Both the position numbers and the translations under genes were made by a program. The notes beneath the pieces were generated by a model, which worked only from the letters and a program-made list of their open reading frames with translations, did not search any database and had not been told where the DNA came from. Source: Scenedesmus sp. ARA3 (lineage: Eukaryota > Chlorophyta > Chlorophyceae > Sphaeropleales > Scenedesmaceae). Taken from it: a stretch of 64,000 bases of DNA. Positions 1,154-64,000 of this stretch are shown piece after piece (positions within the stretch are counted from its first letter, which is position 1; the number at the start of each line of letters is the position of its first letter). Where the stretch lies: positions 1 to 64,000 of the forward strand of contig RWJK01000609.1 in the NCBI GenBank assembly GCA_004335835.1, given 5' to 3'.

Positions 1154-1195
1154 CAGGCTGCCGCCGCACCTGCAACAGGATGTAGCATATGGTTC
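1154..1195 (-). repeat. Junction echo of the MATE exon at 1287-1410
   Basis: On the minus strand this copies the last bases of the upstream exon (ending CTGTTGCAG) followed by a GTGCGG donor and the start of the intron. It has no acceptor, so it cannot be an exon by itself. Confidence 0.7.
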
Positions 1196-1286
1196 ACCAA
1201 CAATGAAACTTTACCCGCCTGCTCCCTGCTGGTATGAGCTGGACATGTAACAAATCAAAACGCATAGAATCAGCCTGTTGCCGCAC

Positions 1287-4200
1287 CTGCAGCAGGATGT
1301 AGCAGAGGTTCTTGCACACGTAGGTCACGCTGAGTGGGCCCATGGTGGCAGCAAAGGCCTGCAGGTCGGGCAGCGACGGCAGCCGCAGCCCAGGGGTCAG
1401 CCCGCCAGACCTGCGGCAGCAGCAGCGGCAAATGTGATTAGTGCTTACAGCAGTACAGCCAGCAGCCAGCAGCCCTGCTGCATCCAGGCATGCACATTGC
1501 TTGTTGACCCCAGCTGCAAGCAAGCATGAAGGTCCGCAGGTCAGCAGCCAGGCGCGCATGTGCTGCCGTCTCCTCACCTGCGCGCCACCAGCACCAGCCA
1601 TGCCCAAACCAGAATGGTTATGAACACCACTGCACTTTACACTGCATGTGCTGCCTGCTCCCTCACCTGCGCGCCACCAGCACCAGCACCGCACATCCCA
1701 GCAGCTGCGTCGTCACAGTCGTAGCAGCCGCGCCCTGCAGCCCCAGCCCCAGCCAGGCCACCGCCACCAAATTACTGCACACATTCACAGCCACAGACAG
1801 CGCCACAGCCAGCGCAGGTGTGCGGCTGTCCTGCTGTGCTAGCTGCCCTCCCTGGCACACCATTGTGAGCAGCACTGCGGGCTGTGCCAGTGCGCGGATG
1901 CGCATGTAGGAGGCGGCTAGGGGCACCAGCACAGGGTCTGCGCCTGTGCAGCCGATCAGCTGGTCTGCTGCCACCTGCGCGCATGTGTAGGAGGGTGGCA
2001 GGGTGTTACAGCTGGTGTGAGGGTTCGAGGAGCAGTTGCATGCGCAGGTTGGATGCCGCGCTGCTGCAGCCGCTGCCGCTGCTGCTGCAATTGCAGGCAG
2101 GTGCAAGGACGGCCAAAGCCAGCAGCAGCTGCTAAGCAGACACTGCAACACATGCCGCTGCTGCCAATCCAGAAGCAGCAGGTGTTGCTCCCCAGCTGCC
2201 GCCAGTGAGCACGCACCTCCATCAGCATCACTGCCACGCGAGACATGCAGCTGTGCAAACACCAGTGGATAGAAGGGTGGCCAAGCATATGCAGCTACGT
2301 GCGCATCTATCGGCTCGTAGCGCCCCACCTCCATCAGCAGCATCACCGGCACGCCAAACATGCTGCTGTGCAAGCGCAAGTGGTTATAAGGGTGGCCAAC
2401 CATAGCAGGCACAGCTGCGCCTCAACTCCATCAGCAGCATCAACACGCACCTCCATGAGCAGCATCACCGCCACGCCAGACATGACGGCCAGCCCTATGG
2501 CCACGCTGAAGGTGTGCTCAGCCCGAGTGCTCTGGCCCCGCCGCAGGTCGTCACTGATCAGGCTGCCGCGAGCAGCAGCAGCGGCAGCAGCAGCAGGGCA
2601 GCAGCAGGAGATTCACAAAGCCTGTGCTGCAGAGGGCTTGCGTGGTGCTGACATGGCACCCCGAAAGGCAGGGCGATAGCACATGCATGTGGTCACCAGA
2701 GACACAGTCGCACGGCGCACACAGCGCTTGCTAGGGGCGACAGCTGCATGTGCAAGCACTGCAGCAGGCTGTGCTTCCCGACACAGCAGTGTCGTACTCT
2801 GTGCCGAGAACCTGCCATAGGTGCATGCGTTGTGTAGTATGCGGTAACCCCTGTACTGCAGCTGCTGCTACGTCGACTGCTGCTGCTGCTGGCCTGCTCA
2901 CTGCAGCCTGCAGTGCCTGCGCTGTACGGTGGCAGGAGTGCTGCTGTCTCTCCAGCAGCCTGGCATCTGGCACTACTGCTGCTGCTGCTGTACACAGTCA
3001 AGACCTGTATGCTGTCAGTATCTGCTAATATTCTGTGCTGCCTGGCATCTGGCACTGCTGCTGCCGCCGCTATACCTGATGGCTGCTATCTGCAGCGCCT
3101 GGAATATGTACTGGCAGAAGCTGAAGATGATGTTGGCGGGGCCCATGGCGGCCAGCTCCTTGGTGCCAGCACACTGCAGTGCACAGCAGTGCAGTACAGC
3201 ACACAGTGCTCAATTGCAGTGCAGGGTGTCAGAGTGCAGTGCAGATGTCGGTTGAACCTATGGCGGCCAGCACACTGCGCGGCACAGCAGCACAGTCCAG
3301 TACAGTTGAGAGTGCAGTGACGTACAGTCACAGTGCCGTACAATCAAGTGCATTGGAGATGTTGGCTGGGCCCATGGCTGCAAGCTCCTTGGTGCCAACA
3401 CAATGCGCGGCACAGCACAGTACAGCACACAGTAGTACCACATTACTGCATGGCAGCTTAGTGAAGTATACTACAGTACAGTGCGGTACAGCACAGAGCA
3501 GTACATTGCAGAGCAGTGCAGTAAAGCACAGCAGAAACGGCAGTACAGCACGCAGCAGCAGCCACCACGTTTGGGCTGCACAGTACACTGGTTCGGTGAA
3601 GCCAGCAAACCCGCCAGAACAATCCCAGCTGTGGCCTGGCAGCAGTGGCTGTCAGCAGGCGGCTGCACGTGCAACAGATGCAGAGGCCCCCAGGCAACAC
3701 ACCAGCAAATTAAACCATGAAAGGGTTCAGGCAACACACCAGCCGCACTGTGGACACCACCTAACTCATGCTGCAACACCTCCCCCCCTTCCAAAAACAT
3801 CATTTACAAACAAAGCCACAGCAGTGACTCACCTGCCCGATGAAGATTGTGTCAGTCAGCGTCATCATGGGGTCACCCAGAGGGATGATGACAGCAGGAC
3901 CCCTGCACCCCAGCAATGTGCCATGATGATGACAGCAAGCCCCGGCTCAGCCGGGTGACTCACAGCACAACGCGTCCACTCTGCGAACAATCCAGCTGCT
4001 ACAGCTGCATTGTGCAACTACAGGCGCATGTGTATGTATGCGCTGCATGATTGTGCTGCAATGGAACAGCACCAGGGAGTGCTGAATGTACCAGTATGCT
4101 TGCACGACATGGCGTCAGCCTGCTGGATTAGCCACGGGACAGAGCATCTACATGATCGCAGTCAACTGTAGCTCACATGAATGCTGCCATGCGGCGCAAG

Positions 4201-5085: not shown

Positions 5086-5173
5086 TCAGTGGATCTCGCT
5101 GCCATCGGGGATCTCTGGCGGCAGTGTCACCAGGCCCTGAGAGGTCACCAGCGGCGTGCCCTCAAACGTAGCC

Positions 5174-5214
<41 letters not shown>

Positions 5215-8200
5215 GTGCAACCAAGTCAATGCACAGCAGCAGCAGCCTTCACGCCTAGCGGGCATGCGGCACAAGGAACCACCTTCCACCGTGTTTCTCA
5301 GCTTCCCCCTGGCACCAACTCCCTCTGCATGACACCAACCCACAGCAGCCTGCAGTGTCCAAGGATCATCCAGTGCAGCTGCTGCTGGCAAACAACAGGT
5401 GTGATTCCGCCACCACGTGCGCTGCCCCTACCTTGCATCCATACTGCCTACACCAGCTACCAGCGTAAAAGAATGTGTCAAAAAGTACATGCTAGCTACG
5501 CCTGCCACCATCATGCATGCCGCGCCCACCGGGCCACCTCCCCGCCCTAAGCCACACCACCAGCCCCGGCATCACATTGCACCACTCATCCAGCTTATAA
5601 ACAGTGTCTACTGCAGCTGCTAGCTGACACTGACTGTTTGGTAGCCTTTTTCAACAGCTGCCAGCCTCCTACCTTGCCCCCCTTGGCCACCACCAGGCCC
5701 GGCACCACCTTGCGCCACTCATCCAGCTTGAGCACCTTGGGGTAGGCGGCAGGCGCAGTGCTGCCGTCCAGGTGCACCAGGTCACCAGGCTGGCTGCCCT
5801 CTGCATGACAGCAGCAATTGCAGTCTTATCAGTGAGTTGGCATTACAAATGTTTACATGGTTCATTGCTGATGCATGTGCCGTCCAGGTGCACCAGGTCA
5901 CCCGGCTGGCTGCCCTCTGCAGGACAGCAGCAATTGCAGTCTTATCAGTGAGTTAGCATTACAAATGTTAACAGGGTTCATTGCTGATGCATGTGCCGTC
6001 CAGGTGCACCAGGTCACCCGGCTGGCTGCCCTCTGCAGGACAGCAGCAATTGCGGTTGATCATGTGGAGCAAACGTGCTTGAACTACTGCTGGTTCCCAT
6101 GTTGTGCATACTAGCACGTGCTGCCGCCCAGGTGCACCAGGTCACCGGGCTGGCTGCCCTCTGCAGGACAGCAGCAATTGCGGTTGTTCATGAAAAGCGC
6201 ATGTTCTACTGCTGGTCCACATGCTGTGTGTACTAGCATGTGCTGCCGTCCAGGTGCACCAGGTCACCGGGCTGGCTGCCCTCTGCAGGCGAGGGCGCAG
6301 GACAACAGCAGATGCAGTCTTATCAGTGGGTTAACGATACAAATGTTTACGTGTTCCCTCGCTGATGCATATGCCGTGCAGGTGCACCAGGCTGCCAGGC
6401 TGGCTGCCCTCTGCAGGCGCAGGCACTGCATGCCGTTGCCTCAGGCACGACATAGGCGCGGCGTTCCCATGAAACCTTATCACCCGAAGCTGAAACTTTC
6501 AGGAATGGAAGAAACATAACAAGCAACCATAAAATATATTGTAAAACAAATTGTAAATTTGGAACAGACAGCAAGCGGCAGTAGGACGGTGATGTAAAGT
6601 TTGAGGAGAAGGGCAGGCTGCACTGCACGCCGTTACCTCAGGCACATCAAAGGCGCGGTGTTCCCCGCTGCATCCGCCGCTGATGCACTTGCAGCTGCTG
6701 AGCGGGCACGCTAGACACAAGGCTAGCCACAACCACGCCACCCCAAACCTCACCTGGCGGCAGCAGTGTCCTTACAATGATCTGCCCCGCTGCATCTGCT
6801 GCCTCAGCTGCCAGCACCATTGCCTTACTGGCTCGGCCAGCCAGCTTGGCTCGACACTAATCAACGTCCTGACTCCTCACCTGGCAGCAGCAGCGTCAGA
6901 ACGATTGTCTGCTCTGCAGCATCTGCCGCCGCTGATTCCCTGGCAGCTGCTGAACAGGCACACCGAACACAAGGCTAGCCACAACCACGCCACCTCAAAC
7001 CTCACCTGGTGGCAGCAGTGTCCTTACAATGATGTTTCCTGCTGCATCTGCTGTCTCAGCCGCCAGCACCATCGCCTCACTGGGCTGGCCTGCCAGCTTG
7101 GCGGGCTTCAGGTTAGACGCCACACACACCAGGCTGCCGGCCAGCTGCTGCGGGCTGATGAACTGAGCCAGGCCTGCGGAGGGCAGGCAGGCAGGCAGGC
7201 AGGGGAGGTGCATCATATGTATGATACACAAGGTTACTGTGAGCAGCTTGATGTGATACAACAACGGGCTGCCCGCCAGCTGCTGAGGGGAGTTGAACTG
7301 CGCCAGGCCTGCAAAAGGGCAGGCAAGAGAACAGATAGGAACAACAAACAGTGATGAAGACAGGCTGCCGCTAGCCGAATGGCGTGATTTTGAGGCAGGT
7401 GAGCTGCCACCTGTGCTCTCCCAGCTCTGACAGACAAAAGAATCTTTTGCTGTGCAAGCCTGTCCCACTGCTCAACCAGCAGTAAGTAAGCTGTAGCAAT
7501 GGAAGCGCGCATGCGCCTCCAGCGCAGAAGCGCACCTGCCATGACTGCGGAGGGCGGCCAAGAGGTGGATATGCAAGAATGGCTGCTGCTGTGCGCAGCG
7601 TGACGACCACAACAACACCACTGAAGCTGTCACCCATGCCCTGCAGCTTTACTGCTAGCTGTTACAGCCAGCCTATTGCGGAGAGTGCCTGTCCCGCTGT
7701 TGACTTTAAATAGCAAATGTTGCCTACAACAGTAAATGCGCGTATGCTGCCCGAAGTGCAACCCACCTGCCATGACTTGGCGTGTGTCGCCACCGCCCAG
7801 GTCGGCCTGCAGCCGCAGCAGCTTGGCGCTGTTCTCCAACGGCTCAGCCGACACGATGCGCGCCACCTGCAGCACACACAACTTTTAACTGTGACGGTGT
7901 GCTGCGCGTGGCGGTGCACGCAGGCCGTGCTGCGCCAGCAGCCTGCTGCTGGCGACGGATGCGTTGGGTACGCAGGTCATTTATATGCGCGGCAGCTGCT
8001 GCATAATGCCCAGCATGTGGCTTGGCGATTGCGCCAACAGGTGCCAAGTCCATACAGGCCTTTGCTGATTGCTGATCAAGTGACTGCTGCCTACCCACTT
8101 CATCGCATGGCGTACAACTGCAAGTGTGGCGCTGTCGAACAAGCTGCAAAGTGTGCCAGCTGCAACAACCCACCTTTATCTGTGCCTTTGTAGTGAGCAC

Positions 8201-8538
8201 CTCACGCGCGCCCTCTGCTGCCTTGCCAGCTGCTGGCGCTGCCGCTGCTGGCAGGGAGCTGGTTGATGCGCTCCCTGCAGCAAGATAATATACAATTTAT
8301 GCGTTGAAAGCACCTGCTGGCGCGCTCAATTGGTGCTATAGGAGGTGGGGTTAGCTACTGGATTTGCTGTCTGGCAGTAGCACAGATTGCTACAGCTGCT
8401 AGGTGTGTCACCTGTGGAGTTGCTTGTTGGCAGCGACTTGGTAGGAGCAGAAGCAGCAGGAGCTGCTGGCGCAGTTCCAATTGCTGCCAGCAGAATCTGG
8501 TCCAGCTTGGCGATAGCCTTGTCAATACTGCTAGCCAT
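5086..8538 (-). CDS. EMAPII-like tRNA-binding-domain protein (aminoacyl-tRNA synthetase cofactor type)
   Basis: Stand-alone protein ending in a tRNA-binding OB-fold domain of the EMAPII/AIMP1/Arc1p family, which in known members helps deliver tRNA to synthetases. Minus-strand exons: 8538-8412, 8274-8174, 7866-7767, 7173-7006, 5800-5673 and 5172-5086. They join in phase to 236 residues plus stop. Residues 1-75 are Ala/Pro/Ser-rich. The domain starts around residue 77 (VARIVSAEPLENSAKL). Family hallmarks include SNLKPAKLAGQPSEAMVLAA and EGSQPGDLV, and the end reads VTLPPEIPDG. I chose the ATG at 8538. The frame is open upstream to an acceptor-like site near 8637, so an additional 5' exon (possibly within 8640-8888) cannot be excluded. 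The alternative, the C-terminal part of a methionyl-tRNA synthetase, is unlikely because no catalytic exons are seen upstream. Confidence 0.88.
5180..5213. repeat. (CAG)11 microsatellite next to an acceptor
   Basis: On the transcribed minus strand this is a CTG tract ending a few bases before the acceptor of the last EMAPII exon at 5172. Confidence 0.9.
5876..6420 (-). repeat. Five acceptor-side junction echoes of the EMAPII exon at 5673-5800
   Basis: Five copies, at about 5878-5928, 5998-6050, 6119-6170, 6241-6290 and 6371-6420. On the minus strand each reads CTGCAG acceptor, then about 40 nt of exon start encoding EGSQPGDLVHLDG (last copy diverged), then unrelated intron sequence without a donor at the exon position. 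The first copies also share flanking intron sequence (the ACAGCAGCAATTGC segment). The real exon is the copy nearest the 3' end of the gene. Confidence 0.9.
6746..6931 (-). repeat. Two donor-side junction echoes of the EMAPII exon at 7006-7173
   Basis: The copy at 6746-6850 repeats the last ~95 nt of the exon plus the GTGAGG donor and still encodes an uninterrupted, conservatively changed peptide (KAMVLAAEAADAAGQIIV). The copy at 6876-6931 is shorter. The surrounding intron sequence is duplicated as well (6670-6745 against 6937-7005). Confidence 0.85.
7264..7315 (-). repeat. Acceptor-side junction echo of the EMAPII exon at 7006-7173
   Basis: Copy of the acceptor and first ~45 nt of the exon (GLAQFNSPQQLAGS against GLAQFISPQQLAGS). 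A further tiny echo of the end of the exon at 7767-7866 lies near 7531-7546. Confidence 0.75.
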
Positions 8539-9166: not shown

Positions 9167-12100
9167 ATGCACAGCAACCATGCAACGCGGGCTTTCTTCA
9201 AGTCTGGCACTGGAGTGGTGCTGGCCGTGTATGACGCAAGGAAAGGGCAGGTGGGCTGCAGCTGCTTGTTTTTGCAGCAGCACATGCGTCACTCAGCTGC
9301 TGTGTTGTGGCACCTTTGTGCAGCTAGCTGGCAGCGGGAGGTTCCTGCAGCACCATGAGCGTGGGGCATACTTCGGCAGCTGGGATGAGCTGCAATGCAA
9401 GATATGCACCAGCATGTGGAACCACTTGCATGGCAGCTGTTGTGCAGCTGTGTTTGACTGCTTTGTAATGTAATAATCAATCCAACTAAATATGCGCTAC
9501 AACATGTTCATGCTGGCTTGCTGCCTCAACGCCTCACCCACATAACCTGCCCACCCTGCCACCGCACCCCTCCTTGCAGGCCGAGGGCGCTGAAGCCGAA
9601 AAGGTGCTGGCCTTCTGGCCGCCCTCAGCCAGCCCCGCCATGCAGAGCAGCATCGTGGGCCTGGCGCAGGCGCTGACCATGTTCGCCGGCACATTCAACA
9701 AGGTGGGCGGCACAGCATGTGTTATGGTTGGGATTCAGGGGAGAGGGTTGGGTGAGCAGTGCTGACCATGTTCTCGGGCACCTTTGACAAGTTGGGTTGG
9801 TGGGGCAGAGGCAGCGCAGCGTGGGGCCGGCTGGTGTCTGCGGCAGCTGCAGCAGGTCAGGTGCGAGGTGTGGGCGCTGACCATGTTCGCGGGCACCTTC
9901 AACAAGGTGGGTAGGATGGCGGAATTCACCCAGCAGCGCAGCGTGTCGCAGATGTTCGTGTCTGTGGTGTAGGCGCTGGCCATGTTCACGGGCACCTCAA
10001 ACAAGGCGCGTTGGTGGGCCAGCTGCAGCGTTATGTTTGGTGTTCAGGGGTGAAGGGAGAGGGTTGACGGAGCAGTGCTGACCATATTTGCGGGCACCTT
10101 CAACAAGGCGGGAGGCGCAGCATATCTTGGCAGCGCAGCGTGGGTGGGGCAGCGGCAGCGCAGCGTGGGGCCGGCTGGTGTCTGCGGCAGCTGCAGCAGG
10201 TGCGAGGTATGGCGCTGACCATGTTTGCGGGCATCTTCAACAAGGTGGGTGGGCCAGCATTGCTCTGCCCCTCACTGTGCAATGCTACAACGTTGCAGAG
10301 TAATGCAACACGCTTGCCGGAGGCCACAGCAGCAGTTGCACCTGTGAGTTAGCGGCTTCAAGGACTGGATACCTATCCATTTGTATGCGACAACGCCATG
10401 CACCGTGCATGCCCGCAGGAGCGCCCCTTCCACAGCATGCAGGCACGCCTCAAACTGCCATCGTCAGCTGTGTAGCAGCTGACACGCGCTAGCCGCATAA
10501 CCTCACTTCACCTGCCTCATTGCATGTCCGCCTGCCCGCAGGAGTGCCCCTTCCACAGCATGCAGGCGCACGTCAAGCTGTGTTTGTAAGCTGTTTGGCA
10601 GGTCATAACAATAAGCAAACGCACCGCAACTCGCCTGCCTGCAGGAGTGCCCCTTCCACAGCATGCAGGCGCACGGCCACAGCTGGGCCATGTACCACGC
10701 AGAGCCTGACCTGTGGCTGCTGCTGCTGGTGGGGCGGGGGCTGGTGGGCCCACACTGCCTGCCTGGCAGCCTGGCGGGATGCCTGAAAGGGCTGCACTCG
10801 CTGGTGGTGCTGCTGCACGGCCTGCTCAGCAGGCAGCAGGAGCAGGTGGGACGGTGCACAACCAGCCTGATGATGTTTACATCAGTCAAAAATACTTGAT
10901 GGTTTTGTGACAGTACCTGCTCAGCAAGCAAGTGTCTTGAACTGTGTTGCGAGCAGTGAAAGCCAGTTGGGTTACACCCTAGAATTTGAATAACGGTACT
11001 GCCTGCCAGGCAGCCTGGCGGGCTGCCTCAAAGGGCTGCATGCGCTGGTGGTGCTGCTGCACAGCCTGCTCAGCAGCCAGCAGGAACAGGTGCGGGGCGG
11101 CAGGGGGCAGAAGCAGGCTGAGGGCGGCTCACTTGGGGAAGAGGGGGGGGGGGCAAGTGAGCAGCCTGTCAGAGGAGTGCGGGGATCAGTTCCACACGCG
11201 CTGGTGGTGGTGCTGCAGCGGAAAAGACGGAGCATACACAGCAGCAGCAGCAGCAGCAGCAGCAGCACGCGTGACGAGGCGGCTGGCACCAAGTGACGCC
11301 GCAGCCCTACCACAGTCCCCTGGCAACTGATGCCTGCTGCACACTGCGCCGCACGGCTTCTTTCCGCCTGCCTTAAGCAAAAGATTAATCCAAAAAAAAA
11401 AAACCGGAACCCCACCCCACCCCACCTATCCTGCCCCTGCAGGACCCCTCAGGGCTGCGGCTACATGCCCGCTTGCAGCCGCTGCTGGCCCAGGCTGCTG
11501 CCAGCCCGCCAGCTGGACATACCTGTTCCCGCGTGCCGTTCTTCAAACCCCACTCTTTAAATCCCTGCAGGACCCCTCGGGCCTGCGGCTGCGTGCCCGC
11601 TTGCAGCCGCTGCTGGCCCAGGCAGCATCCAGCCTGCTCACACCGGACGCATGCGGCCTGTGGCCCATCGCGTGCCCCTTGGGGCTGACTGGGGGTGTGC
11701 CGCTGCTGCCAATCTCACCGGCAGCCTTCACACGTGAGTGCAGGCCTGCAGGCTGCAGTTGGGCATGCTGCGTGGCTGCTGGTGTGGTGTGGTGTGAGCA
11801 GCAGTGGTGTGGTGTGGTGTGGTGTGAGCAGCAGTGGTGTGCTGCTGCTGCTGCTGCTGCTGCTGGTGTGGTGTGGTGTGGTGTGGTGTGAGCAGCAGTG
11901 GTGTGCTGCTGCTGCCAGTCTCGCCTGCAGCCTTCATACATGAGTGGGGCCCTGCCGTGATGTCGTTGGAGCTGCATTGCAGTGCTGTGGCGGGCATTGG
12001 GCTTGGAGCTGCAGGTGGACTGCTGCTGCTGCTGCTGCCAGGCTGACCGGTTGCCTTCACGCATGTTGCAGGCAGGCACGAGCACCTTGACTGTGGCCGG

Positions 12101-15100
12101 CATATGCAGCAGTTGCTGTAACTGTGCAGGCCATGGCGGGTGCTTGCATGTTGATCGTGTCCCGCCGCATCCTTGCTGCTGCTGCTGCTACTGTTGCCCC
12201 CACAGGTCTGCAGAGCCTGGCCAACAGCCTGCTAGTGGCGCGCCTGTTTGGCAGCCGCCCCGTGCTGGGGCTGCTGGCGGCCTGGCAGGGCTGCCTGCTG
12301 TGGAGCAGCATGGGCAGCGGGGACACTGCAGCACTCGCCAGCCTGGCGGTGAGAGCACTGGAGCCGGCAGCACGCGAGGGCCCGCGGCACAAGACGGTGA
12401 GTGAGGCGTGGGCTGTGACTGACAGGGAGGGGTAGGCAGCTGGGGAAGGTGCCTGCAGCAGCAGAGCAGCCCCTAATGCTGTGAGCCAGCACAAGACGTG
12501 CTGGCCTGCTGGCGGCCTGGCAGGGCTGCCTGCTGTGGAGCAGTTTAGGAAGTGGGGACACTGCAGCACTGGCCAGCCTGGCGGCAAGAGCACTGGAGCC
12601 GGCAGCACGCGAGGGCCCAAGACACAAGACGGTGAGTGAGGGTGAGGTGGGCTGTTATGAAAGGGTGCGATAGGCAGCTGGGGAAGGTGCCTGAGGCAGC
12701 AGAGCAGCCCCTAATGCTGTGAGCTAGCACAAGACGTGCTGGGCCTGCTGGCGGCCTGGCAGAGCTGTGGAGCAGCATGGGCAGCAGTGACACTGCAGCA
12801 CTGGCCAGCCTGGCGGTGAGAGCACTGGAGCCGGCAGCACGCGAGGGGCCGCGGCACAAGACGGTGAGGCGCGCGCGGGTGGGCTGTTACAAAAGGGTGT
12901 GACAGGCAGCTGGGGAAGGTGGCTGAAGCAGCAGAGCAGCCAATGATACTGCGAGCCAGCACAAGACGTGCTGGCCTGCTGGCTGCGTGGCAGGGCTGTG
13001 TAGCAGCATGGGCAGCGGGGACACCGCGGCTCTGGCCAGCTTGGCGGCAAGAGCAGTGGAGCCGGCTGCACGCGAGGGCTCGAAACACAAGACGGTGAGG
13101 CACGCGCGGGGTGGGCTGTTACAACAGGGTGGGGTAGGCAGCTGGGGAAGGTGCCTAAAGCAGCAGCAGCAGCCAATAATGCTGTGAGCCAGCTCAAGAC
13201 GTGCCTGCATGTGGCCTGGCAGGGCTGCCTGCTGTGGAGCAGCATGGGCAGCGGGGACACCGCAGCACTGGCCAACTTGGCGGTGAGGGCACTGGAGCCG
13301 GCAGCACGCGAGGGTCCGAGACACAAGACGGTGAGGCGCGTGTGGGTGGGGGCGGGTAGTACTGGTGTGACCAAAAAATGGATTGCCAGCTGGAGCCGGC
13401 GGCACGCGAGGGCCCGAGACGCAAGACGGTGAGGCGCTCGCGTGGGCTGTGACTAGAAGGGAGGGGTAGGCAGCTGGGGAAGTTGCCTGAAGCAGCACAG
13501 CAGCCCCTAATGCTGTGAGCCAGCACAAGACGTGCTGGCCTGCTGGCTGCCTGGCAGAGCTGTGGAGCAGCATGGGCAGCGGGGACACCGCAGCACTGGC
13601 CAGCCTGGCGGTGAGAGCACTGGGAGCCGGCAGCGCGGGAGGGCTCAAGACACAAGACGGTGAGTGAGGCGTGGGTTGGTGGGGGTGGGTTGGGTAGTGC
13701 TGGTGCGACCAAACTCGAATGGCCAGCTGGAGCCGGCAGCACGCGAGGGGCCGAGACACAAGACGGTGAGTGGCGCACAGCGTGGGCTGTTACAAGAGGG
13801 TGGGGTAGGCAGCTGAGGAAATTGCCTGAAGCAGCAGAGCAGCCGACAAAGGTGTGAGCCAGCACAAGACGTGCTGGGCCTGCTGCGCGCGAGGGGCCGC
13901 GGCACAAGACGGTGAGTGACGTGCGGGCTGGCGTGGGTTGGGTAGTGCTGTTGTGACCAAACTGGAATGGCCAGCTGGAGCCGGCGGCACGCGAGGGGCT
14001 GCGGCACAAGATGGTGAGGCGCGGGGCGGTTGGACCTTGACCTGACTGCTATGATAGATAGGCAGCTGGGCAAGGTATCAGAGTGTATGAGAAGCAGCAG
14101 GCCAGCCACTGGTGCAGGGTGAGCTAGAAGGAGGCACGCTTATCGCCCTGGCTGAGCAATGGGCTTGTGCTTGCTGCTGTTTGTTCTTATTGCTGCAGGT
14201 GCGGCGGCCTCTGGGGGGCACTGCGCAGCACCCACAGCAGCAGCAGCAGGCAGCAGATGGCTCAGACCCTCACGGCAGCAGCAGCAGCAGCATTTGCCTG
14301 GCCAACCCTGCTTGCTGGTACAGCAGGCAGGATGGGCTGCTGCTGCCGGTTGCTGCTGCAGAGGGCAGCGCTGCTGGCGCGGCTGCGGGCAGTTTGGAGT
14401 TTCCAGAGGTGTGGCTGCAGGTGAGGGTGACAGCGCAGCCCAGCTGGCGTGGCTTTGCAGGATGCATACAAGCATACATGCAGCAGCAGCAGCATTGTTT
14501 GCTATGGAAACAGACACTGCCAGTTGAATCTGCTGCATACTGCATCAACACTGCCGCTTGTTGCCGCCTTGCGTGTCGTTGACATCAAATTGCATCAGTT
14601 GCATGCAAGCAGGCTATTGAAGCATCCGTGCGTTGTTTACGTGTACCGGCTGTGTTGTGCAGTCGGGCTGCGAGCGTGCGCAGCTGATGGCATGGCACAG
14701 TGGGCCGCTGCTACTGCTGCTGCTGCTGGAGTGCCGCAGCCCTGCCGGCACATCAACAGCAGCAGCAGCAGGCCCACCATCCCTACCAGTCAGCACTCCA
14801 GCATCATCAGCTGCTGATGTTAATACCAGCAGCAGCAGCAGCACTACCAGCCAAGCAGCAGCAGCAGCAGCAGCCACTGCTGCCAGCCTGCTGGAGCTGC
14901 TGGCTGGGCCTGGTCATGCCCTGGCGGGGCAGTTGGCTGGTGAGCTGCCTGCCAAGCACCTGTGGCACGTGCAGGGCCTGCGCTACCTGTACCAGGACCA
15001 CCTGGCGGCGGCTGTGAGGTGCGGGGTGTGGAGTCGGGCTGCTGCTGCTGCGGGTTGTGGTTGTAGTGAGAAGGCTGCTTGTTGTGTTTGCACTGGTGTG

Positions 15101-15823
15101 GTGCCTCAAAGGTGCAATACTCATGGTGCTTGTGAATGCTGGACTGGCTGGTGGAACAGCAGCACAGCAGCAGCACAAGTGCACGCATGCTTTTGCAGAT
15201 GACCTTAGAACGCATGTCGATGGGTGCACTTTCAGCTCCGCACACCTCAGTTGTTGCATGTGCCTGCTGCCACTTGCTGTGTGCACAGCCTCAGCCCATG
15301 TCTTGCACAGCTCACCACCGGCAATTGCTGATGTTCATGCTTCTGTACTGGCTCCTGCACCTGCTGCTGCAGGGCGTCGCCGCTGCGCAAAGTCGCCACG
15401 CTGTCTCAGCCCTCGCTGCACCTCACCGCAGACACACGCCGCTGGGCAGCGCTAGAAGCCGCAGCAGCAGTAGACCCCACGGCCCCCGCACTAGGCGAGC
15501 AGGCAGCAGCTGCAGCAGCCACAGCCGCTGCTGCTGCAGCAGCAGCAGCGAACAGTCAGCGCAGCAGCGGCGGTGGCGGGGGCGCTGACAGCACTGTTGC
15601 GGAGCAGTGGGAGTCGTTTGCAGCTGGGGGCTCGGATGCGGATGTGGAAGTTGTGGTGCGAGGGGCGAATGACTGCTGGGTTGTGGGGCGGCACACGGCA
15701 GCAGGGCGGCAGCTGACGGCTGCTGCGGAGGGTGATAAGGACCGCGGCATGCTAGGGTTCATGCGCAGGGTGCAGACGTTCTGCGACAATGAGGTGCCGG
15801 GCGTGTTTGAGGGGCTGTTCTGA
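9167..15823 (+). CDS. CCZ1: Vacuolar fusion protein CCZ1 homologue
   Basis: Homologue of CCZ1, which with MON1 forms the exchange factor that activates Rab7 on late endosomes and the vacuole. Exons: 9167-9250, 9580-9702, 10645-10845, 11571-11733, 12206-12396, 14199-14420, 14663-15018 and 15373-15823. They join in phase to 596 residues plus stop. The N-terminal longin-like region starts VVLAVYDARKGQ, continues with EKVLAFWPPSASP and GLAQALTMFAGTF, then the conserved YHAEPDLWLLLLVG motif of CCZ1. The middle holds low-complexity Gln/Ala/Ser insertions (residues about 260-390). The C-terminal domain (DTRRWAALE, then NDCWVVGRH to FCDNEVPG) matches the last CCZ1 longin domain. The first exon is short and its ATG follows an in-frame stop. 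The introns carry exceptionally many copied junction fragments, listed separately. Confidence 0.88.
9758..10245 (+). repeat. Five donor-side junction echoes of CCZ1 exon 2
   Basis: Copies of the exon end encoding ALTMFAGTFNK at about 9758, 9878, 9972, 10075 and 10211. Two (9908, 10243) keep a GTGGGT donor; three have lost the GT. Adjacent intron sequence is copied too (9803-9860 against 10146-10205). Confidence 0.9.
10412..10572 (+). repeat. Two acceptor-side junction echoes of CCZ1 exon 3
   Basis: Copies at about 10412-10450 and 10532-10572 read CCCGCAG acceptor plus exon start encoding ERPFHSMQA and ECPFHSMQAH, before the real acceptor at 10644. Confidence 0.85.
10999..11095 (+). repeat. 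Donor-side junction echo of CCZ1 exon 3
   Basis: About 88 nt of exon end copied with donor GTGCGG. The frame is intact with conservative changes (CLKGLHALVVLLHSLL against CLKGLHSLVVLLHGLL). It has no acceptor of its own. Confidence 0.85.
11436..11510 (+). repeat. Acceptor-side junction echo of CCZ1 exon 4
   Basis: CCTGCAG acceptor plus the first ~65 nt of exon 4, lying about 130 bp before the real acceptor at 11570. Confidence 0.85.
11780..11905 (+). repeat. GTGGT simple repeat with CTG tract in a CCZ1 intron
   Basis: Runs of GTGGT units alternate with GAGCAGCA and a CTG tract, three times over. This is simple-sequence expansion within the intron after exon 4. Confidence 0.85.
11896..12070 (+). 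repeat. Two degraded donor-side echoes of CCZ1 exon 4
   Basis: Sequence like the exon 4 end (CTGCTGCCA...GCCTTCACAC) recurs at about 11905-11950 and 12030-12070. The donor GT is replaced by AT in the first copy and the match is weaker in the second. Confidence 0.65.
12503..14014 (+). repeat. Nine-copy donor-side echo array of CCZ1 exon 5
   Basis: Real exon 5 ends at 12396. Its end recurs with a donor at 12631, 12863, 13094, 13331, 13429, 13660, 13765, 13911 and 14013, every one GTGAG. Spacing is about 232 bp for full copies (around 120 nt of exon plus 110 nt of intron) and about 100-145 bp for the short ones. Full copies still encode WSSMGSGDTAALASLA-type peptide, some with small deletions. 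None has an acceptor. Confidence 0.93.
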
Positions 15824-16520: not shown

Positions 16521-17258
16521 ATGACGCATGCACCTCCTTCACCTTGTGTACGCCTGCAACAACCGTCTTGTGTGCAGGCAGCAGCACCTGCTGCTCCGCA
16601 GCAGCGCAGCATCGCCCGCTTGGCTTCCGCAGCACTCGGCAGCAGCAGCACCTGCAGCAGCAGGCGCGGCAGCCTGGCAGCCTGCAGAGTAGCGCAGGTG
16701 GACAAGCCAGCAGCAGCAGCAGCAGCAGCAGCAGTGGCAGCACCAGCCAAGCAGGAGGGCGTGGCAGCAGATGTGACAGCACTGGTGGGCAACACGCCTA
16801 TGGTGTACCTGAACAGGGTCACTGCTGGCTGTGCTGCCAAGGTTGCTGCCAAGCTGGAAATCATGGAGCCCTGCTGCTCAGTCAAGGTGAGGCGCAGAAC
16901 TGGCCAAACCTAAAACAGGCATGCACGCAAGTTGTATGCCAGATGTTGTATCCGAGTAGGGCTTGACCAGTGGCCGAAAACTTCTGCAGCAGCTGCTGGC
17001 AGGTTGAGGTGAACATGCAAGTCACGAGGCAGGCCTAGCAGCTGCAGCAGCAGCTGGTGCTCATGGTGATGCTGCATCAGGCAACAATGTGCTGCTGCTG
17101 CTGCTGAGCAGCAGGCCAGTTATGTGGCTGGGCCGTGCAGCAGACCCTGCGCTGCCAAGCTGTCGTTTGCATCAGCAACTGCAGCAAGCATACTGGTACG
17201 CCGAACATAGCAGGACACCACAAGTGTGTGGTCAGAGACTGCCACACACAGTCCACAA

Positions 17259-17291
<33 letters not shown>

Positions 17292-18079: not shown

Positions 18080-18132
<53 letters not shown>

Positions 18133-18365
18133 GTGCTATAAGGAACCAGTCTCTTGTAATCGCCAATGGTAAAGCATGCTGCAGGCCTTCAGGGCTAAGC
18201 TGGTGCTGACAGGTGCGCTTGAGTAAGGGCTGTTGCGGCAAGCAGCAGCAGCAGCAGCGGTGCTATCAGGAACCAGTCTTTTGTAACCGCCAATGGTAAA
18301 GCATGCTGCAGGCCTTCGGGGCCAAGCTGGGGCTCACGGGTGCGGCGCAGGGGGCTGCATGGGTG

Positions 18366-18404
<39 letters not shown>

Positions 18405-18979: not shown

Positions 18980-19037
<58 letters not shown>

Positions 19038-48800: not shown

Positions 48801-51035
48801 AGGTGAGTTGAAGGGGAAGGCAAACTGCAGCAGCAGCAGCAGCAGCCCAGCAGCAGCAGCAGTGAAGGTGACAGCGCACAACAGCCTGCAGGTGCCGGTG
48901 GCACCAGTTGTCTACAGCTCAAGTTCCTTCCACAGCGCGCCAACTACGACAATAGCGCCAGCAGCAGCATTTCGCTGCCGCTGATGGCCCAGAAACTAAT
49001 GCTGTACAGCAACCAGTTCATCCGTGTGCAAATGATGGTCTTCTGGCCACAAAGATTGTGCGCCATCAGCGCCTTGATCACCGCCAGGCACTGCTTGGCA
49101 GCCAACCACCGCAACAGCAGCAACACCTTGCTCCTGCTGCTGACGCGCCACCTACTGCTGCGGTCACAATACGTTACGTTGCGTTGCATACTCACCTTGT
49201 GCGCCATCAGCGCCTTGATCACCGCCACTGCTCGACTTCCAACCGCTACAACAGCAGCAGCATCTTGCTACAGCTGCTGATACACCATGCATCATCTGCT
49301 GCTGCGCTCACCTTGTGAGCCATGAGCGCCTTGATCACCGCCAGGCACTGCTTGGCAGCCACCTCAGCCAGCCTCCGCGAGCGGGCGCCCGCCAGCATGC
49401 GGCGCTCACTGGCGTCCAGCCGCGGCGCCTTGGCTGCTGCTGCTGCTGCTGCTGCGCTGCGCGGCGAGAGCTTCCAGGCAGACACAGCACGCGTCTGCAG
49501 CAGCGGCGCCACGCGCGAGGGCACGACAAACTCGGTTAGGCTTGAGGAGCACCACAGTGGTATGACAGGAGCCATGGCTGGGAGCATGTGCTAGGTGCAA
49601 CGCTTGGTTGTGCATAAAGAAGCAAGCGTTGTTGCTGTGCGCACAGCACGATCGCCCTGCACCTCCCAAACACGCACACACAGCACCCACCCGTGCGTTC
49701 ACTGCATGTAAACAGCAACATTCACAACCTAAACCGCCCACCCACCTCGCACAGTGCGCCCTCCACCTGTGCGGTGAGCTCCGCAAACTTGCGCTTCAGA
49801 TTAAACACTTTGCGCTGCTTCAGCCGCAGATCACGCTCGCTGGGCTGCCGCGCGCCAACAGCAGCAGCGCCATCCGCGGCGCCGCCTGCTGCTGCTGCTG
49901 CTGCCTCCTCCTGCTCATCTGCACCATCCATATCTGAATCCAGCAGCAGCAGCTGATCATGCATGTCTCTGCTGCTGCTGTGCTGCTGCAGAGCTTGCTG
50001 CGGGGCGTCCTGCTGCAGCTGGTGGGAGGCCTGCTGCTGCTGCTGCTGCTGCTGCTCTGCCTGAGGAGCTGCAGCAGCAGGTGCTGCAGCAACAGCTGCG
50101 CCGGGAGTGTTAGCTGCAGCAGCTGCTGCAGCGGCCTCGGCTGCTGCTATGGCTGCCTCTGCAGCAGCAGGGATGCGTGACGCTGCTGCTACTGCTGCTG
50201 CCTCCAGCGCTGCGGAAGCAGGCGCCACTGCGCCTGTGCTCTCTGGTGAAGCAGCAGTGGAAAGGTCCAAGCCTACCACCTGCTGCTGCTTCTGCTTCTG
50301 TTGCTGCTTGTGCATGCGCATCGTCGCAGCGTTGTGGCTGGCGGCAGCTGCTGCAGCTGCAGCTGTTGCTGCTGCTTGTTCCTGCAGCGCTACAGCGCCC
50401 TGCACCTGGAACGCTGCTGCCAGTAGTGATGCGCTGTCAACTGCCACTGGCGCAGCAGCTCCTGGCCGCGCAGCAGCTGCTGCTGCAAGTGCAGCTCTGC
50501 TGTCTATGGCTGCGCCAGCAGGTGCTGCATCGCCATGCTGCAGCTTCTGCTGCTGCGCGTCTGCTCCTGCTGCTGCTGTTGTGGCTTTTGCTGCTGCAGC
50601 AGCTGCTGCCGGGCCTGCCAGCGCAGCTCGCATGGCAGGGTCGAGGCCTAACAGCATGCCTTGCTGTTGCACTCTGCTTGCGGCAGCATCCTGCTGATGT
50701 TGCTGCTGCTGCTGGTGCTGCTGTTGCTGCTGCTGTGCTGCCATCAGCACTGCTCCCTGACGCGTGGGGTCCTGGTAGAGAGCCGCTTGAACCTGCTGTC
50801 CTTGCACTAGCTGCGCCAACGCCTGCATCTGCAGGCCTCCAAGGCCCTGAGCAGCGCCCAGGAGCGGGACTATGTGGAAGGGCACTGCCACAGGCTGACG
50901 AACAGTTTGGCCCTCGGGAGCGCCAGCACCCGCAGGCATCTGTATATATGCAATCTGGTACGGCATCGATGCGGCCAGCTGCTGCACCTGCTGGCCCGCA
51001 CCCTGCCCTTGCTTGGCTTCGCCTTGCTGCGACAT
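44417..51035 (-). CDS. BET-family bromodomain protein (bromodomain plus NET domain)
   Basis: Chromatin reader that binds acetylated histones, like plant GTE and animal BRD proteins. Minus-strand exons: 51035-49746, about 49590-49312, 48824-48693, 48538-48449, 48051-47845, 47580-47416, 46492-45781 and 45237-44417; phases agree, about 1231 residues. Exon 1 (430 residues) is Ala/Gln-rich and ends in a basic segment (LKQRKVFNLKRKFAEL). The bromodomain spans exons 2-5: CLAVIKALMAHK, FAFPFNSPVD, YVKTPMDFGSM, and FNNARTYNQPTEDV with the acetyl-lysine-binding Asn (TYN), then YFQERW. The usual WPF/WVF shelf reads FPF. A charged coiled-coil follows, then NET (LPQRQLEAALGLVLPRL and LEVEVDLARCSALELRQLQQ). 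The tail is polyGln and acidic. The exon 2 acceptor is ambiguous: 49590 or 49530 both keep phase. The start is the first ATG in frame. Confidence 0.93.
45571..45776. repeat. 50-bp minisatellite, four copies, abutting a BET donor
   Basis: Four copies of a 50-bp unit (the last lengthened to 56 bp) built from AGCACC repeats and the segment CACTGAACACAAGCTC. The array ends four bases before the donor at 45780-45781 of the second-last BET exon, so the intron start itself is the repeated unit. Confidence 0.92.
46585..47141 (-). repeat. Five acceptor-side junction echoes of the BET NET-domain exon
   Basis: On the minus strand each copy reads an AG acceptor (CTGCAG, TTGCAG or CAGCAG), then GGCAGCAGC and the exon start encoding RLEVEVDLAR. 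They lie at about 46585-46636, 46721-46770, 46850-46887, 46968-47020 and 47100-47141, before the real acceptor at 46493. Flanking intron sequence (GAGCAGCAGCAACGATGA) is shared between copies. Confidence 0.92.
48118..48165 (-). repeat. Acceptor-side junction echo of the BET exon at 47845-48051
   Basis: CCTGCAG acceptor plus exon start reading EHFQERWS against EYFQERWS in the real exon, then divergence. Confidence 0.8.
49060..49235 (-). repeat. Two donor-side junction echoes of the BET exon at 49312
   Basis: Copies of the exon end encoding AVIKALMAHK at about 49195-49230 (donor GTGAGT intact) and 49063-49118 (donor lost, CTTTGT). Both are in the following intron. Confidence 0.85.
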
Positions 51036-60802: not shown

Positions 60803-62600
60803 AAGTGGCAGCTTCAAGAAGAGTAGCCATGCCCGCGGCATGAGTGTGTCATGGGATGCTGCAGCCTTAAGCGCAATGAGTTCTGCATCAGGGCGCCCCG
60901 ACAGCTTGCATGTGCGTATTGATGAGGCAGATGGAGACCAGCAATTTGTTGCAGCGGCAGCGTTAGCACCTGGTGCTGACGCTGCAGCGCAGTTGCAGTA
61001 TAGCTGCACCAGCCCTGGAGCGCTGCAGACAGACAGCAGCAGCGGCTGGACGCTGCAACAGGCTGGAGTAGAGCCAAACAGCAGCTGCAGCAGCCCAACA
61101 GCTGCAGCAAGGTGCGGCAGCACCGGCTGGTCATCTGGCGGCGGCAACACTATTTCTTCTGGCAGCCCTGACTGCCCGGATAACTCGCTCAGCGGCGCCA
61201 GAGCTGCTGCTGCTGCTGCTGCTCGTCGCAGTAGTGCTGCAGATGGTGAGGTGCGCTGGCTCATGGATAGCTCTCAGGACGGCGGTACTAATATTAGTAG
61301 CACTGCTGCCAGCAGTGCTGGGGGCTACAGGGCTGTAGCTGGGCTGGGGCCTGCAGGGCTGGCTCAGGAGCAGGATGTAGCTGCTGAGGCGCAGCTGGCG
61401 CTGGCTGAGCTGCACAGCGAGGCCTCAATGCTGAGTCCAAGTGCTGGCAGGGCGAGCTTTGGGTGGCAGGGGCTGGGGCGGCAAGGCAGCGCAGTCAGTG
61501 TGGCGGCAGGGGAAGGTGCTGGTGATGCTGATGGGCTCGAGTTGGATGATGCTGACGATGATGATGGTGGTGGGCCTGGCGGCAGCAGCAGCAATGAGGT
61601 ATCCTGGGCGGCGGCCGGCGCATGCCAGTCACAGCCGGGCAGCATGCCTAGCTCACCCAAACGCTCCGCTGCAGGTGCAGCAGCAGGGTTTGGCTTGCAG
61701 GGTTCTGGCAGCAACAGCAGCAGCAGCGGCCAGCAGCAGCAGCAGCAGCCGGGGTCGCCGAGTGGCAGGGCTTCCCTGGCAGTCAGCAGGAGCAGCAGCA
61801 GGCGCGGCAGTGCTGCTGCGGATGGCGGCGGCGGCGTGTATTCTGTGCTGAGTGAGCTGGACCTGTCGCAGAACCCGCTGGGGGCCACAGGCGCCAAGGT
61901 GGTGGCAGAGGTGCGCGCAATAATGCTGCAGGCGGCGGTGTGGCTGTGCCTGCGATTTAAATGCAGAGGCGCCAAGAACAGTTCGAATGTTGAATGTTGT
62001 CATAGTAAACATTACTACGTCCCTTGGTTCCTCGCCCTTCATCTCCCTGCGCCCAGCTGATGGACCCGGGCCGCAACCCCAGCCAGTTCCTGCTGTCCGC
62101 CAACCTCTGCTCCACTCCCCAATGAGAAAAATTAAACACACTCACTCCTCGTCTCCCTGTCTGCGCAGCTGCTGGACCCGGGCCGCAACCCCAGCCAGTT
62201 CCTGGTGTCCCTCAACCTGGCCAAGTGCGGCATCCCAGAGGCGGGCGGCCTGGCCCTGGCTGCCGCGCTGGCTGCGGGCAACCTGCGGCTGCGTGTGCTG
62301 GGCCTGTCGCATAATGCGCTGGGCAACAAGGCTGCTGCTGCCTTTGGGGAGCTGCTGGAGGGCAGCCACACGCTCAAGGAGCTGGACCTGGGCTGGAACC
62401 AGATCAAGGTGGGGGGCTGGGAGGCTACACACTAGAATGGCTGATGTTCACAGCACCACACATGATGCATGATGCATCGGGAGCAGGCGGGCACACAGTG
62501 GTGGCTGGTGATGTGCATGTGCAACCAGCAACACCGTTGCCGCACAGCGGGAGGGATTCCTCTCACAGACGCAACCACCTGCAGACACACATAACACTGG

Positions 62601-62640
<40 letters not shown>

Positions 62641-64000
62641 ACTGCTGGTGGTGTGTGATGGTAAATGATTCCCGCAGGCAGAGGGAGCGCGCGGCCTGGC
62701 GCGGGGCCTGTCTGCCAACGCCACGCTGGCCAAGCTGGTGCTGTGCTGGAACGGTCTAGAAGCTGGCGGGGGTGCTGCCATGGGCGAGATGCTGGCGCTG
62801 AACATGGGGCTGAAGAGCCTGGACCTGAGCCACTGCAGGCTGGGGCCTGAGGCCTGCCTGCTGCTGGGGGAGGGGCTCAAGGTGCGGCGTTGTGTTTATT
62901 GTTCCTATGTGTTGCCTGGAAGGGACCCAGCCATGCAGCTTGCTAATGTGTGTCGTGTGCCTGCTGCTGCTTCTGCTGCTGCTGCTTGCCTGCAGGCCAA
63001 CGTGGTGCTGGAGTTACTGCTGCTGGCCGGCACTGCCCTGGGATGTCTGATGCAGATCAATGCGTGATGTGCGCCTGCTGCTGCTGCTGCTGCTGGCTGC
63101 TGCTGTCGTGCAGGCCAACGTGGTGCTGGAGGTGCTGCTGCTAGCAGGCAACGACATCGGCGAGGACGGTGCGCGCCACCTCATGACGGCGCTGGCCGCC
63201 AACAGCAGCCTGCGCTTCCTGGGGCTCAACGGATCCAACCTGTCAGGTGAGCCGTTTGTGTTGTGAGGGGAAAAGGCTGTGAGCGTGTTTGTGTTGTGAG
63301 GCAGAAAGGCTGTGAGCTTGTAATGTGCGAGGGCTGGNGGGGGGGGGCGCAGGAGGCCGTTTGCCAGGCTGGCAGCCCCCTTATGCGGTAGAAGCAGCGC
63401 GGCACAGCTATCAAGAGCAGCACCAGTAGTGCTGCTGCCAAGCTTGTTCCATAGAATCCGTTGCCTTGCAAGCTGTTAGCGCCCCAACTGCCGCACAGCT
63501 GCAGGCAGCAGTGCCACCTGCTTATGCGTGTCTGCCCTGCAACTGCATGTCGCTGCGCTGACAATGTGCCCCTGCTGCCCCTGCATGTAGCTGCCGTGCA
63601 CGATGCTGCCGGCAGCCCTGCTGACTTCAACCCCGCCAGCCCTGATGGCGACTACACGCTAGACCTGAGTGTTGCTGCTGAGCGTGCTGTGGCTGTGCAG
63701 CTGGCGGAGCTGGACAGGGCCAACACCAGCGGCAGCGGGCCAGACCTGATGCGCAACATAAAGCTGGACGGCAAGGTGGGGTGCAGCCGGCCGCGTGTTG
63801 GTACCCTCTGCTGTGCAGCATGGACTCAATGGTTTGGGGATGACACCGCCGCTGCTGCTCACTTTATTGACGCCGTCTATGTCACACGTGTAGCACTGAA
63901 ATTGCCTACTTATCCGCGCTGGCTGCATACATTCGACACATTGCAGGCCATCCCCTCGGCCAAGAAGGCCAACTGGCCTGCCATGCTGCCCAGCCGCGGC
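56629..64000 (+). CDS. Leucine-rich-repeat (RNI/LRRC74-like) protein, partial, 3' end outside window
   Basis: Large protein with ribonuclease-inhibitor-type LRRs. Exons: 56629-57650, 57952-58042, 58270-58608, 58884-59141, 59392-59526, 59800-59889, 60116-60259, 60561-61910, 62169-62408, 62678-62881, 63114-63246, 63591-63775 and 63947 onward; all phases agree, 1415 residues so far. Residues 1-270 are Gln/Ser-rich. Residues 280-690 hold helical segments (RRHLEQLGVTELTEQEERL, FILDDAVLQRVNQ, EAVSRRWKQP). YETRCAELGLTPCSQ followed by LRRs resembles the lead-in of LRRC74-type proteins. The LRR pattern begins VALDLRDNGLDG, is broken by about 420 Ser/Ala/Gly-rich residues in exon 8, then resumes (LSELDLSQNPLGATGA, LVSLNLAKCGIPEAGG, VLGLSHNALGNKA, LKELDLGWNQI, KSLDLSHCRLGPEA, EVLLLAGNDIGEDGA). 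Function unknown; scaffold or ciliary role would be speculation. The first ATG in the exon was taken. Confidence 0.85.
60773..60800 (+). repeat. CTG/GCT tract within LRR exon 8
   Basis: Encodes a run of about ten Ala inside the low-complexity insert. Confidence 0.85.
62050..62112 (+). repeat. Acceptor-side junction echo of LRR exon 9
   Basis: GCCCAG acceptor plus the first ~50 nt of exon 9 (LMDPGRNPSQFLLS against LLDPGRNPSQFLVS), about 110 bp before the real acceptor. Confidence 0.9.
62603..62641 (+). repeat. CTG tract in the intron before LRR exon 10
   Basis: About 13 CTG units some 35 bp before the acceptor at 62677. Confidence 0.9.
62990..63055 (+). repeat. Acceptor-side junction echo of LRR exon 11
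   Basis: CCTGCAG acceptor plus exon start (ANVVLELLLLAGT against ANVVLEVLLLAGN), about 117 bp before the real acceptor; a CTG tract precedes both. Confidence 0.9.
63338..63338. other. Ambiguous base N beside a poly-G run
   Basis: Single unresolved base at the start of a G homopolymer in the intron after LRR exon 11. It marks a sequencing or assembly weak point and does not touch any exon. Confidence 0.95.

What the first reader, a model, noticed from the sequence alone, without database searches (positions are those of the whole stretch)
1154..63055. Splice-junction echo arrays: tandem copies of exon-intron boundaries throughout the introns
Seen directly: about 50 partial exon copies. In all cases I could place, copies of an exon's 3' end plus donor lie in the following intron, and copies of acceptor plus exon 5' start lie in the preceding intron. 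This is the arrangement expected if segments spanning splice junctions are duplicated in tandem, so that introns grow while scattering complete-looking decoy splice sites. The true site is always the copy attached to the whole exon: the first donor or the last acceptor. It occurs in MATE, EMAPII, CCZ1, cysteine synthase, two cluster genes, BET, LRR and the orphan exon. I know of no named element class that matches. The cell must choose the right site among near-identical decoys, which implies either strong exon-definition signals or widespread alternative splicing.
Basis: partly seen in the sequence, partly recalled or inferred. Interest (0 to 1): 0.9.

Follow-up and report, generated by a model that had tools for sequence, protein, structure and literature searches.

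The report
Splice-junction mirages in algal introns
In this green alga, short stretches of DNA of about 100-140 bases are copied in tandem so often that many introns hold near-perfect copies of the neighbouring exon edge with a working-looking splice site; such copies are known in lancelets as 'mirages', and here they occur in many genes and mislead gene annotation.

Summary
In three genes whose exons I fixed with Tetradesmus obliquus proteins, 11 of 34 junctions carry 31 echoes in their own intron; none is inverted, none lies in the wrong-side intron (28 tests), and 544 controls gave 1 hit. It recurs at 10 of 85 scored junctions of other loci of the genome. Echoes are local direct duplications; 44 of 106 offset clusters lie at 100-140 bp, 2 at 40-70. 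Exon-free DNA has the same duplications (median offset 116 against 121.5 bp). Random duplications that spare exons give the observed share of junction-spanning cases if ancestral introns were 200-300 bp, but not with present introns. So the 'same side, outermost true site' rule needs no junction-targeting element; it is what selection would leave. A named class exists: amphioxus 'mirages'. An EMAPII protein from a 1,280-base contig, too short for the 3.4-kb gene, joins the outermost sites past at least six decoys, so splicing is accurate there; two other database models take in echoes and a third runs into the intron. Open: why 100-140 bp, and why echo and exon differ too often at synonymous sites.

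The parts
5089..8538 (-). EMAPII-type (tRNA_bind) gene; exons 8538-8412, 8274-8174, 7866-7767, 7173-7006, 5800-5673, 5172-5089
   Evidence: Pfam PF01588; exons mapped with P0128, P0129 and P0130; splice signals read
5876..6415 (-). five acceptor echoes (acceptor plus about 45 bp of exon start) before the exon that starts at 5800, unit about 116-128 bp
6755..6850 (-). donor echo of the exon ending at 7006
5555..5596 (-). donor echo of the exon ending at 5673
7261..7325 (-). acceptor echo of the exon starting at 7173
   Evidence: missed because of CAG masking
9167..15823 (+). CCZ1-like gene; exons 9167-9250, 9580-9702, 10645-10845, 11571-11733, 12206-12396, 14199-14420, last exon about 15373-15823; exons between 14420 and 15373 not fixed
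   Evidence: homologue P0121 mapped; Pfam Intu_longin_1 below cut-off
9761..10249 (+). five donor echoes of the exon ending at 9702 (ALTMFAGTFNK)
10407..10572 (+). two acceptor echoes of the exon starting at 10645
10998..11092 (+). donor echo of the exon ending at 10845; carries residues (A, S) found in other entries' exons
11435..11509 (+). acceptor echo of the exon starting at 11571
11900..11955 (+). degenerate donor echo of the exon ending at 11733 (AT at the junction column)
12497..14022 (+). nine donor echoes of the exon ending at 12396, spaced about 232 and 98-147 bp, within a 1,802-bp intron
16600..20703 (+). cysteine synthase gene; exons 16600-16886 (start approximate), 17298-17355 (gene finder only), 17891-18052, 18625-18782, 19045-19171, 19466-19557, 19831-19932, 20509-20703
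   Evidence: Pfam PALP; homologue P0001 mapped; exon 17298-17355
17689..17731 (+). acceptor echo of the exon starting at 17891 (AA at the junction column)
18177..18344 (+). two donor echoes of the exon ending at 18052
20154..20369 (+). two acceptor echoes of the exon starting at 20509, each led by a CTG run
1556..1598 (-). donor echo in the MATE gene
2210..2404 (-). two donor echoes in the MATE gene (exon 2451-2562)
3358..3433 (-). acceptor echo in the MATE gene
49056..49227 (-). two donor echoes in the bromodomain gene (exon 49312-49433)
48128..48233 (-). acceptor echo in the bromodomain gene
62031..62106 (+). acceptor echo in the LRR gene (exon 62169-62408)

Best explanation
The echoes are mirages: by-products of a local tandem-duplication process, most often 100-140 bp per unit, that acts on exon edges, introns and exon-free DNA alike. 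A duplication that lies inside an exon or copies a whole exon changes the protein and is lost; one that lies in an intron or crosses one junction leaves an intact exon with its own site, as long as the site attached to the whole exon is used. So copies of a donor end up downstream and copies of an acceptor upstream, and introns lengthen. Shown: local, direct, same-side copies; unit size; longer introns where echoes are; presence of the first CCZ1 echoes in another T. obliquus entry; protein-level use of the outermost sites in three genes. Inferred: that purifying selection is the filter, that units arise by break repair or replication error (paired-nick / fill-in type), and that exon definition picks the outermost sites.
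For: Direct only: window tiles 105 of 953 with a local direct copy and 0 inverted; other loci 145 of 2011 and 7. Same side only: 13 of 102 against 0 of 102 opposite; 31 echoes against 0 in 28 wrong-side tests. Depth profile: deep exon 4 of 167, last 40 bp of exon 26 of 218, junction 12 of 81, intron 47 of 550. Random placement with introns capped at 200-300 bp gives a junction share of 0.54-0.73, observed 13 of 18 in other loci. Echo-bearing introns are all longer than echo-free ones. Window 5500-10300, with two arrays, matches only itself among scored candidates; the search of 12000-16000 gave no outside match to the CCZ1 array. P0128, a 236-aa protein from a 1,280-base contig, joins 7006 to 5800 past at least six decoys. 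Three other Sphaeropleales have mean introns of 230-302 bp, T. obliquus 462 bp (PMC5966456 table).
Against: With present-day intron lengths random placement gives only 0.32-0.41 and with a 500-bp cap 0.42-0.50, so 13 of 18 would be an excess (P 0.0006-0.007 and 0.009-0.048); the fit needs shorter ancestral introns. 37 of 78 clusters have an aligned length below 0.8 of the offset, which looks spaced rather than tandem; I read it as decay of the intron part. Exon/echo differences hold fewer nonsynonymous changes (66.5) than a neutral-echo simulation (97-100, sd 6), which plain decay does not fully explain. No cause for the 100-140 bp mode is shown. Five of 15 other loci show no such repeat.
Confidence: 0.8

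Rival explanations
1. A junction-targeted duplication process, for example tied to the spliceosome, R-loops or a copy-paste of exon edges.
For: Junction and exon-edge tiles have copies more often than intron tiles (28 of 191 at -20 and 0 against 47 of 550); 13 of 18 duplications in genes of other loci touch an exon edge, more than random placement gives with present introns.
Against: Exon-free duplications have a similar unit size; in the window's verified genes 9 of 20 clusters touch no exon, although most of these 9 are copies between echoes; introns capped at 200-300 bp reproduce the share; exon-derived copies stay recognisable longer.
Confidence: 0.1
2. Echo exons are, or recently were, used as alternative coding exons and are kept by selection.
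For: Codon-position differences 40/26/94 between exon and echo and fewer nonsynonymous changes than simulated; echo-only variable columns 23/16/53, driven by 4 of 11 families; no stop in the eight CCZ1 echoes compared; one T. obliquus model includes echoes (P0122).
Against: Indels in exon-derived echo parts: 8 frameshifts, 0 multiples of three; the L003 acceptor echo has no donor although its 11 differences are all synonymous; 7 of 11 families show 13/10/11; P0121 and P0128 omit the echoes.
Confidence: 0.07
3. Assembly artefact: alleles or reads joined in tandem.
For: The unit size is near short-read length; the assembly is fragmented (1567 contigs).
Against: Most extended copies differ by 7-35 per cent; CCZ1 has nine echoes; the separate model P0122 encodes echo 1 (36 of 36), echo 2 (34 of 34), echo 3 (31 of 32) and the intron after it (41 of 41) as in the window, and echo 4 with one residue different in place.
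Confidence: 0.02
4. A dispersed intronic element (introner-like) that carries exon edges.
For: Many introns are affected.
Against: The echo DNA searched matches only its own locus (no outside match to the CCZ1 array); each echo is a copy of its own exon.
Confidence: 0.01

Closest known systems
Mirages (minisatellite-like tandem duplications of exon-intron boundaries) in amphioxus Adh3, globin, troponin C and PGBD5 genes (PMC3087553 and PMC3902484, passages seen)
   Same: Tandem copies of exon edge plus splice site, both 5' and 3' boundaries, units of 10-160 bp, many copies keep AG/GT, normal splicing reported undisturbed.
   Different: Green alga; in all three curated genes and in other loci of the genome; the unit size has a sharp mode at 100-140 bp with secondary units near 230 bp; the first CCZ1 units agree between two T. 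obliquus entries, whereas length instability is reported in amphioxus.
Intron gain by tandem duplication (Rogers model; potato RdRp case PMC4974935, passages seen; Gao and Lynch 2009 known only as cited there and)
   Same: Tandem duplication across an exon-intron boundary supplies splice signals.
   Different: Here copies lengthen an intron and are skipped; no new intron was shown.
Small tandem duplications from break repair with CST / Pol alpha-primase fill-in (PMC8355091, passages seen)
   Same: Direct tandem duplications that need no repeat.
   Different: Mechanism known from mouse and human cells at induced breaks; nothing tested in this alga.

Membership tests
Mirage minisatellites | tandem duplication of segments that span an exon-intron boundary | tested here: met
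   31 echoes at 11 of 34 verified junctions
Mirage minisatellites | both donor and acceptor boundaries affected | tested here: met
   6 of 17 donors, 5 of 17 acceptors
Mirage minisatellites | copies keep splice signals | tested here: met
   25 of 31 keep GT or AG; mean donor score 9.28 (17 echoes) against 9.10 (17 real), acceptors 7.48 (10 echoes) against 6.71 (17 real) (matrices trained by the same gene finder, echoes picked by having GT or AG)
Mirage minisatellites | regular splicing not disturbed | tested here: inconclusive
   Met for EMAPII by the transcript-like P0128 and for CCZ1 and CysK by gene models P0121 and P0001; no RNA reads examined
Mirage minisatellites | length instability between haplotypes or somatic cells | tested here: inconclusive
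   The first CCZ1 units agree with P0122; copy number of whole arrays not comparable
Introners | similar copies dispersed over many genes | tested here: not met
   Own-genome searches of echo DNA find only the locus itself
Rogers-type intron gain | a new intron created by the duplication | not tested
   Intron positions in relatives were not compared

The most novel reading that the evidence does not exclude
This alga has a genome-wide duplication process with a built-in length of 100-140 bp that has lengthened its introns by half or more and seeded them with decoys as strong as the true sites, and its spliceosome regularly picks the outermost pair, which proximity rules or intron definition would not predict; the genome is a natural experiment for exon definition in a short-intron alga.
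Probability: 0.35. Interest if true: 0.75.

Novelty: new member of a known kind. Interest (0 to 1): 0.5.

Why it matters
It extends a little-known phenomenon of lancelets to green algae (my searches of openly licensed papers, listed no such report; listings and passages only). It offers a reason why T. obliquus has the longest mean intron of the four Sphaeropleales in the table seen, gives many ready-made tests of how a spliceosome chooses among equal sites, and warns that gene models of this alga can be wrong at such introns.

Tried and rejected
Junction targeting: simulated; not needed if ancestral introns were 200-300 bp, an excess otherwise. Dispersed element or paralogous template: own-genome searches of two stretches found no outside source. 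The search of 12000-16000 gave 60 further matches, all to short parts from about 14225 on and none to the echo array; some overlap CAG runs, one (about 14574-14628) is a dispersed 54-base sequence, not followed. Haematococcus genome paper: passages seen, nothing matching. Plasmodiophora paper: passages seen, unrelated. Rfam scan of the window at gathering scores: no family. Functional echo exons: weighed and set aside because of frameshifts, though the codon signal stays unexplained; GC-to-AT biased mutation would bring the expectation closer (my estimate, not run). The 113 exon-echo pairs were redundant and were replaced by one echo per junction.

Weak points of my own work: the gene finder is home-made and self-trained; searches list BLAST pairs in one order only and so undercount (seen, where the same search also failed on planted units of 25-45 bp; the size spectrum therefore rests); one search looked at offsets of 13-699 only and left out window 1-1120, while one search has families at 441 and 886 bp; one search scored 102 of 145 junctions after masking; one search dropped by hand 12 predicted exons (echoes called as exons, or chance matches) and one LRR donor; one search found one pair with exon on both sides, left out of 13 of 18, and counted as intron one pair (L024 6194) that has 6 exon bases; one search's list of echo-bearing introns is the nine plus EMAPII intron 3 added by hand.
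Full report
What was checked. The window is the first 64 kb of contig C422 of an 87.3-Mb genome in 1567 contigs. A self-trained gene finder gave gene models; Pfam confirmed tRNA_bind (EMAPII), MatE, PALP (cysteine synthase), bromodomain and LRR proteins, and gave a weak, below-cut-off CCZ1/INTU longin match. Homologue searches placed the organism close to Tetradesmus obliquus: the cysteine synthase exons are near-identical to OEZ86_005940, the CCZ1 gene to OEZ86_005939 and the EMAPII gene to OEZ86_005938, so three neighbouring genes are collinear. The name of the strain is not known.

The echoes are real and one-sided. With exons of EMAPII, CCZ1 and CysK fixed by these proteins (one CysK exon from the gene finder), I probed each of 34 junctions of 17 introns. 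Eleven junctions (6 of 17 donors, 5 of 17 acceptors) have 31 echoes in their own intron, 0 in inverted orientation, 0 in 28 wrong-side introns; 544 probe-by-other-intron controls gave 1 hit. Masking of CAG runs hides at least two more. In 25 of 31 the GT or AG is intact. With gene-finder junctions over the window and 15 other loci of the genome, 13 of 102 had a same-side echo, 0 an opposite-side one, 0 an inverted one, and 0 of 408 non-local draws matched; 10 of the 85 junctions outside the window had one. So it is a feature of the genome, not of the window alone, although five of the 15 other loci had no repeat of this kind.

They are local duplications with a preferred size. In the offset spectrum of 16 sources (offsets 13-699), 106 clusters fall as 26 at 13-40 bp, 2 at 40-70, 13 at 70-100, 44 at 100-140, 8 at 140-200, 13 at 200-400 and none above; 7 inverted diagonals had a hit. 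A different search lists two families at 441 and 886 bp. The mode is similar for clusters that touch an exon (42, median 121.5) and those that do not (36, median 116), so it looks like a property of the mutation process rather than of splice sites. One fresh case, L007 6798-7019, is an identical copy 108 bp away with an aligned length of 114, that is, head to tail with 6 further matching bases. Other pairs align over less than their offset (37 of 78 below 0.8), with the exon part kept best; I take this as decay of the intron part, but spaced copying is not excluded. The stretch 5500-10300, which holds two arrays, matches nothing else among scored candidates of the genome.

Why the same side. 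A duplication inside an exon, or of a whole exon, changes the protein; one across a single junction does not, provided the site joined to the whole exon is used. That alone gives donors downstream, acceptors upstream and the outermost site as the true one. Copies are rare deep in exons (4 of 167 tiles centred 60-100 bp inside), common in the last 40 bp (26 of 218) and at the junction (12 of 81), and present along introns (47 of 550). In simulations of random duplications (offsets drawn from the observed 70-160 bp) with decay, the share of detected ones that touch an exon edge is 0.32-0.41 with present introns, 0.42-0.50 with introns capped at 500 bp, 0.54-0.59 at 300 bp and 0.68-0.73 at 200 bp; observed 13 of 18 in other loci. 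In the window's verified genes 11 clusters touch an exon and 9 do not, most of the 9 being copies between echoes. The ten echo-bearing introns of the verified genes are 472-1802 bp, the seven others 137-411 bp (Mann-Whitney P 5e-5), and three related algae listed in PMC5966456 have mean introns of 230-302 bp against 462 bp in T. obliquus (passage). So shorter ancestral introns are plausible and no junction-seeking process is required, though a modest one is not excluded.

Splicing. EMAPII intron 4 (1205 bp) has, besides the true pair, one donor echo and five acceptor echoes, and two donor echoes by the looser rule; all five acceptor echoes score higher (5.7-10.4) than the true acceptor (2.7). 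The database protein P0128 comes from a 1,280-base contig that is too short for the 3,450-bp gene and must, I infer, be a transcript; it joins 7006 directly to 5800. Echo donors score 9.28 on average against 9.10 for true ones, echo acceptors 7.48 against 6.71 (the matrices come from the same gene finder, so this is only indicative). The use of the outermost pair suggests recognition across the exon.

Annotation. Three T. obliquus models of CCZ1 disagree exactly at the array: P0121 skips it, P0123 runs past the true donor into the intron and stops, P0122 reads through echoes as exons. P0122 differs from the window at three residues in the compared exons, so I take it for another strain; yet its echo 1 (36 of 36), echo 2 (34 of 34), echo 3 (31 of 32) and the intron after it (41 of 41) agree with the window, and echo 4 differs at one residue. 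So at least this part of the array is older than the split and is no assembly error. P0130 ends in the residues encoded by an EMAPII echo.

An unexplained side result. One echo per junction (34 gene-finder junctions in window and other loci, a different set from the 34 above) gives 93.5 synonymous and 66.5 nonsynonymous differences and 1 stop, with codon-position counts 40/26/94; a neutral echo beside a constrained exon should give about 97-100 nonsynonymous (sd 6). Echo-only variable columns are 23/16/53 (P 3e-6), due to four of eleven families. Against coding use stand 8 frameshifting indels and none of three and echoes that lack a donor. GC3 is 0.861 in exons and 0.820 in echoes, so decay is under way. 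Some echoes carry residues that other entries have in the true exon (CCZ1 A for S and S for R; EMAPII A for P and A for T), so part of the signal may be change in the true exon, or alleles mixed by recombination, since the copy was made.

Known kind. [quoted passage not shown] PMC3902484, passage). My literature searches cover openly licensed papers only; their listings show no report in green algae.

Noticed in passing
window 1-1099: Array of about 90 copies of a 12-base unit (consensus ACCCCGCATGTT) at the contig end.
   Followed up: no
window 22000-37400: Cluster of reading frames on both strands with similar Ala/Gly-rich C-terminal ends (GALLL), suggestive of a tandem gene family with membrane-anchor tails; two predicted proteins from there had no Pfam match at E 0.01.
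   Followed up: no
window 14574-14628: A 54-base sequence in the CCZ1 gene with many near-identical copies (about 89-100 per cent) on other contigs: a dispersed repeat, unlike the echoes.
   Followed up: no
window 20154-20567: Each acceptor echo of the last CysK exon is led by its own long CTG run; one echo has many T-ending codons and a 2-base frameshift.
   Followed up: partly
L003:4899-4993: Acceptor echo of 30 codons with 11 synonymous and no nonsynonymous differences from its exon, but without a donor; the own-genome search found only it and its exon.
   Followed up: partly
L024:5289-5408 and 5757-5866: Two similar segments both called as exons; may be a true exon duplication.
   Followed up: no
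window 20676-20798: The end of the CysK coding region with its stop codon is echoed in the 3' flank, 83 bp on.
   Followed up: no
window 25164-25276: Clean 14-base tandem array, 8 copies, 97 per cent matches.
   Followed up: no
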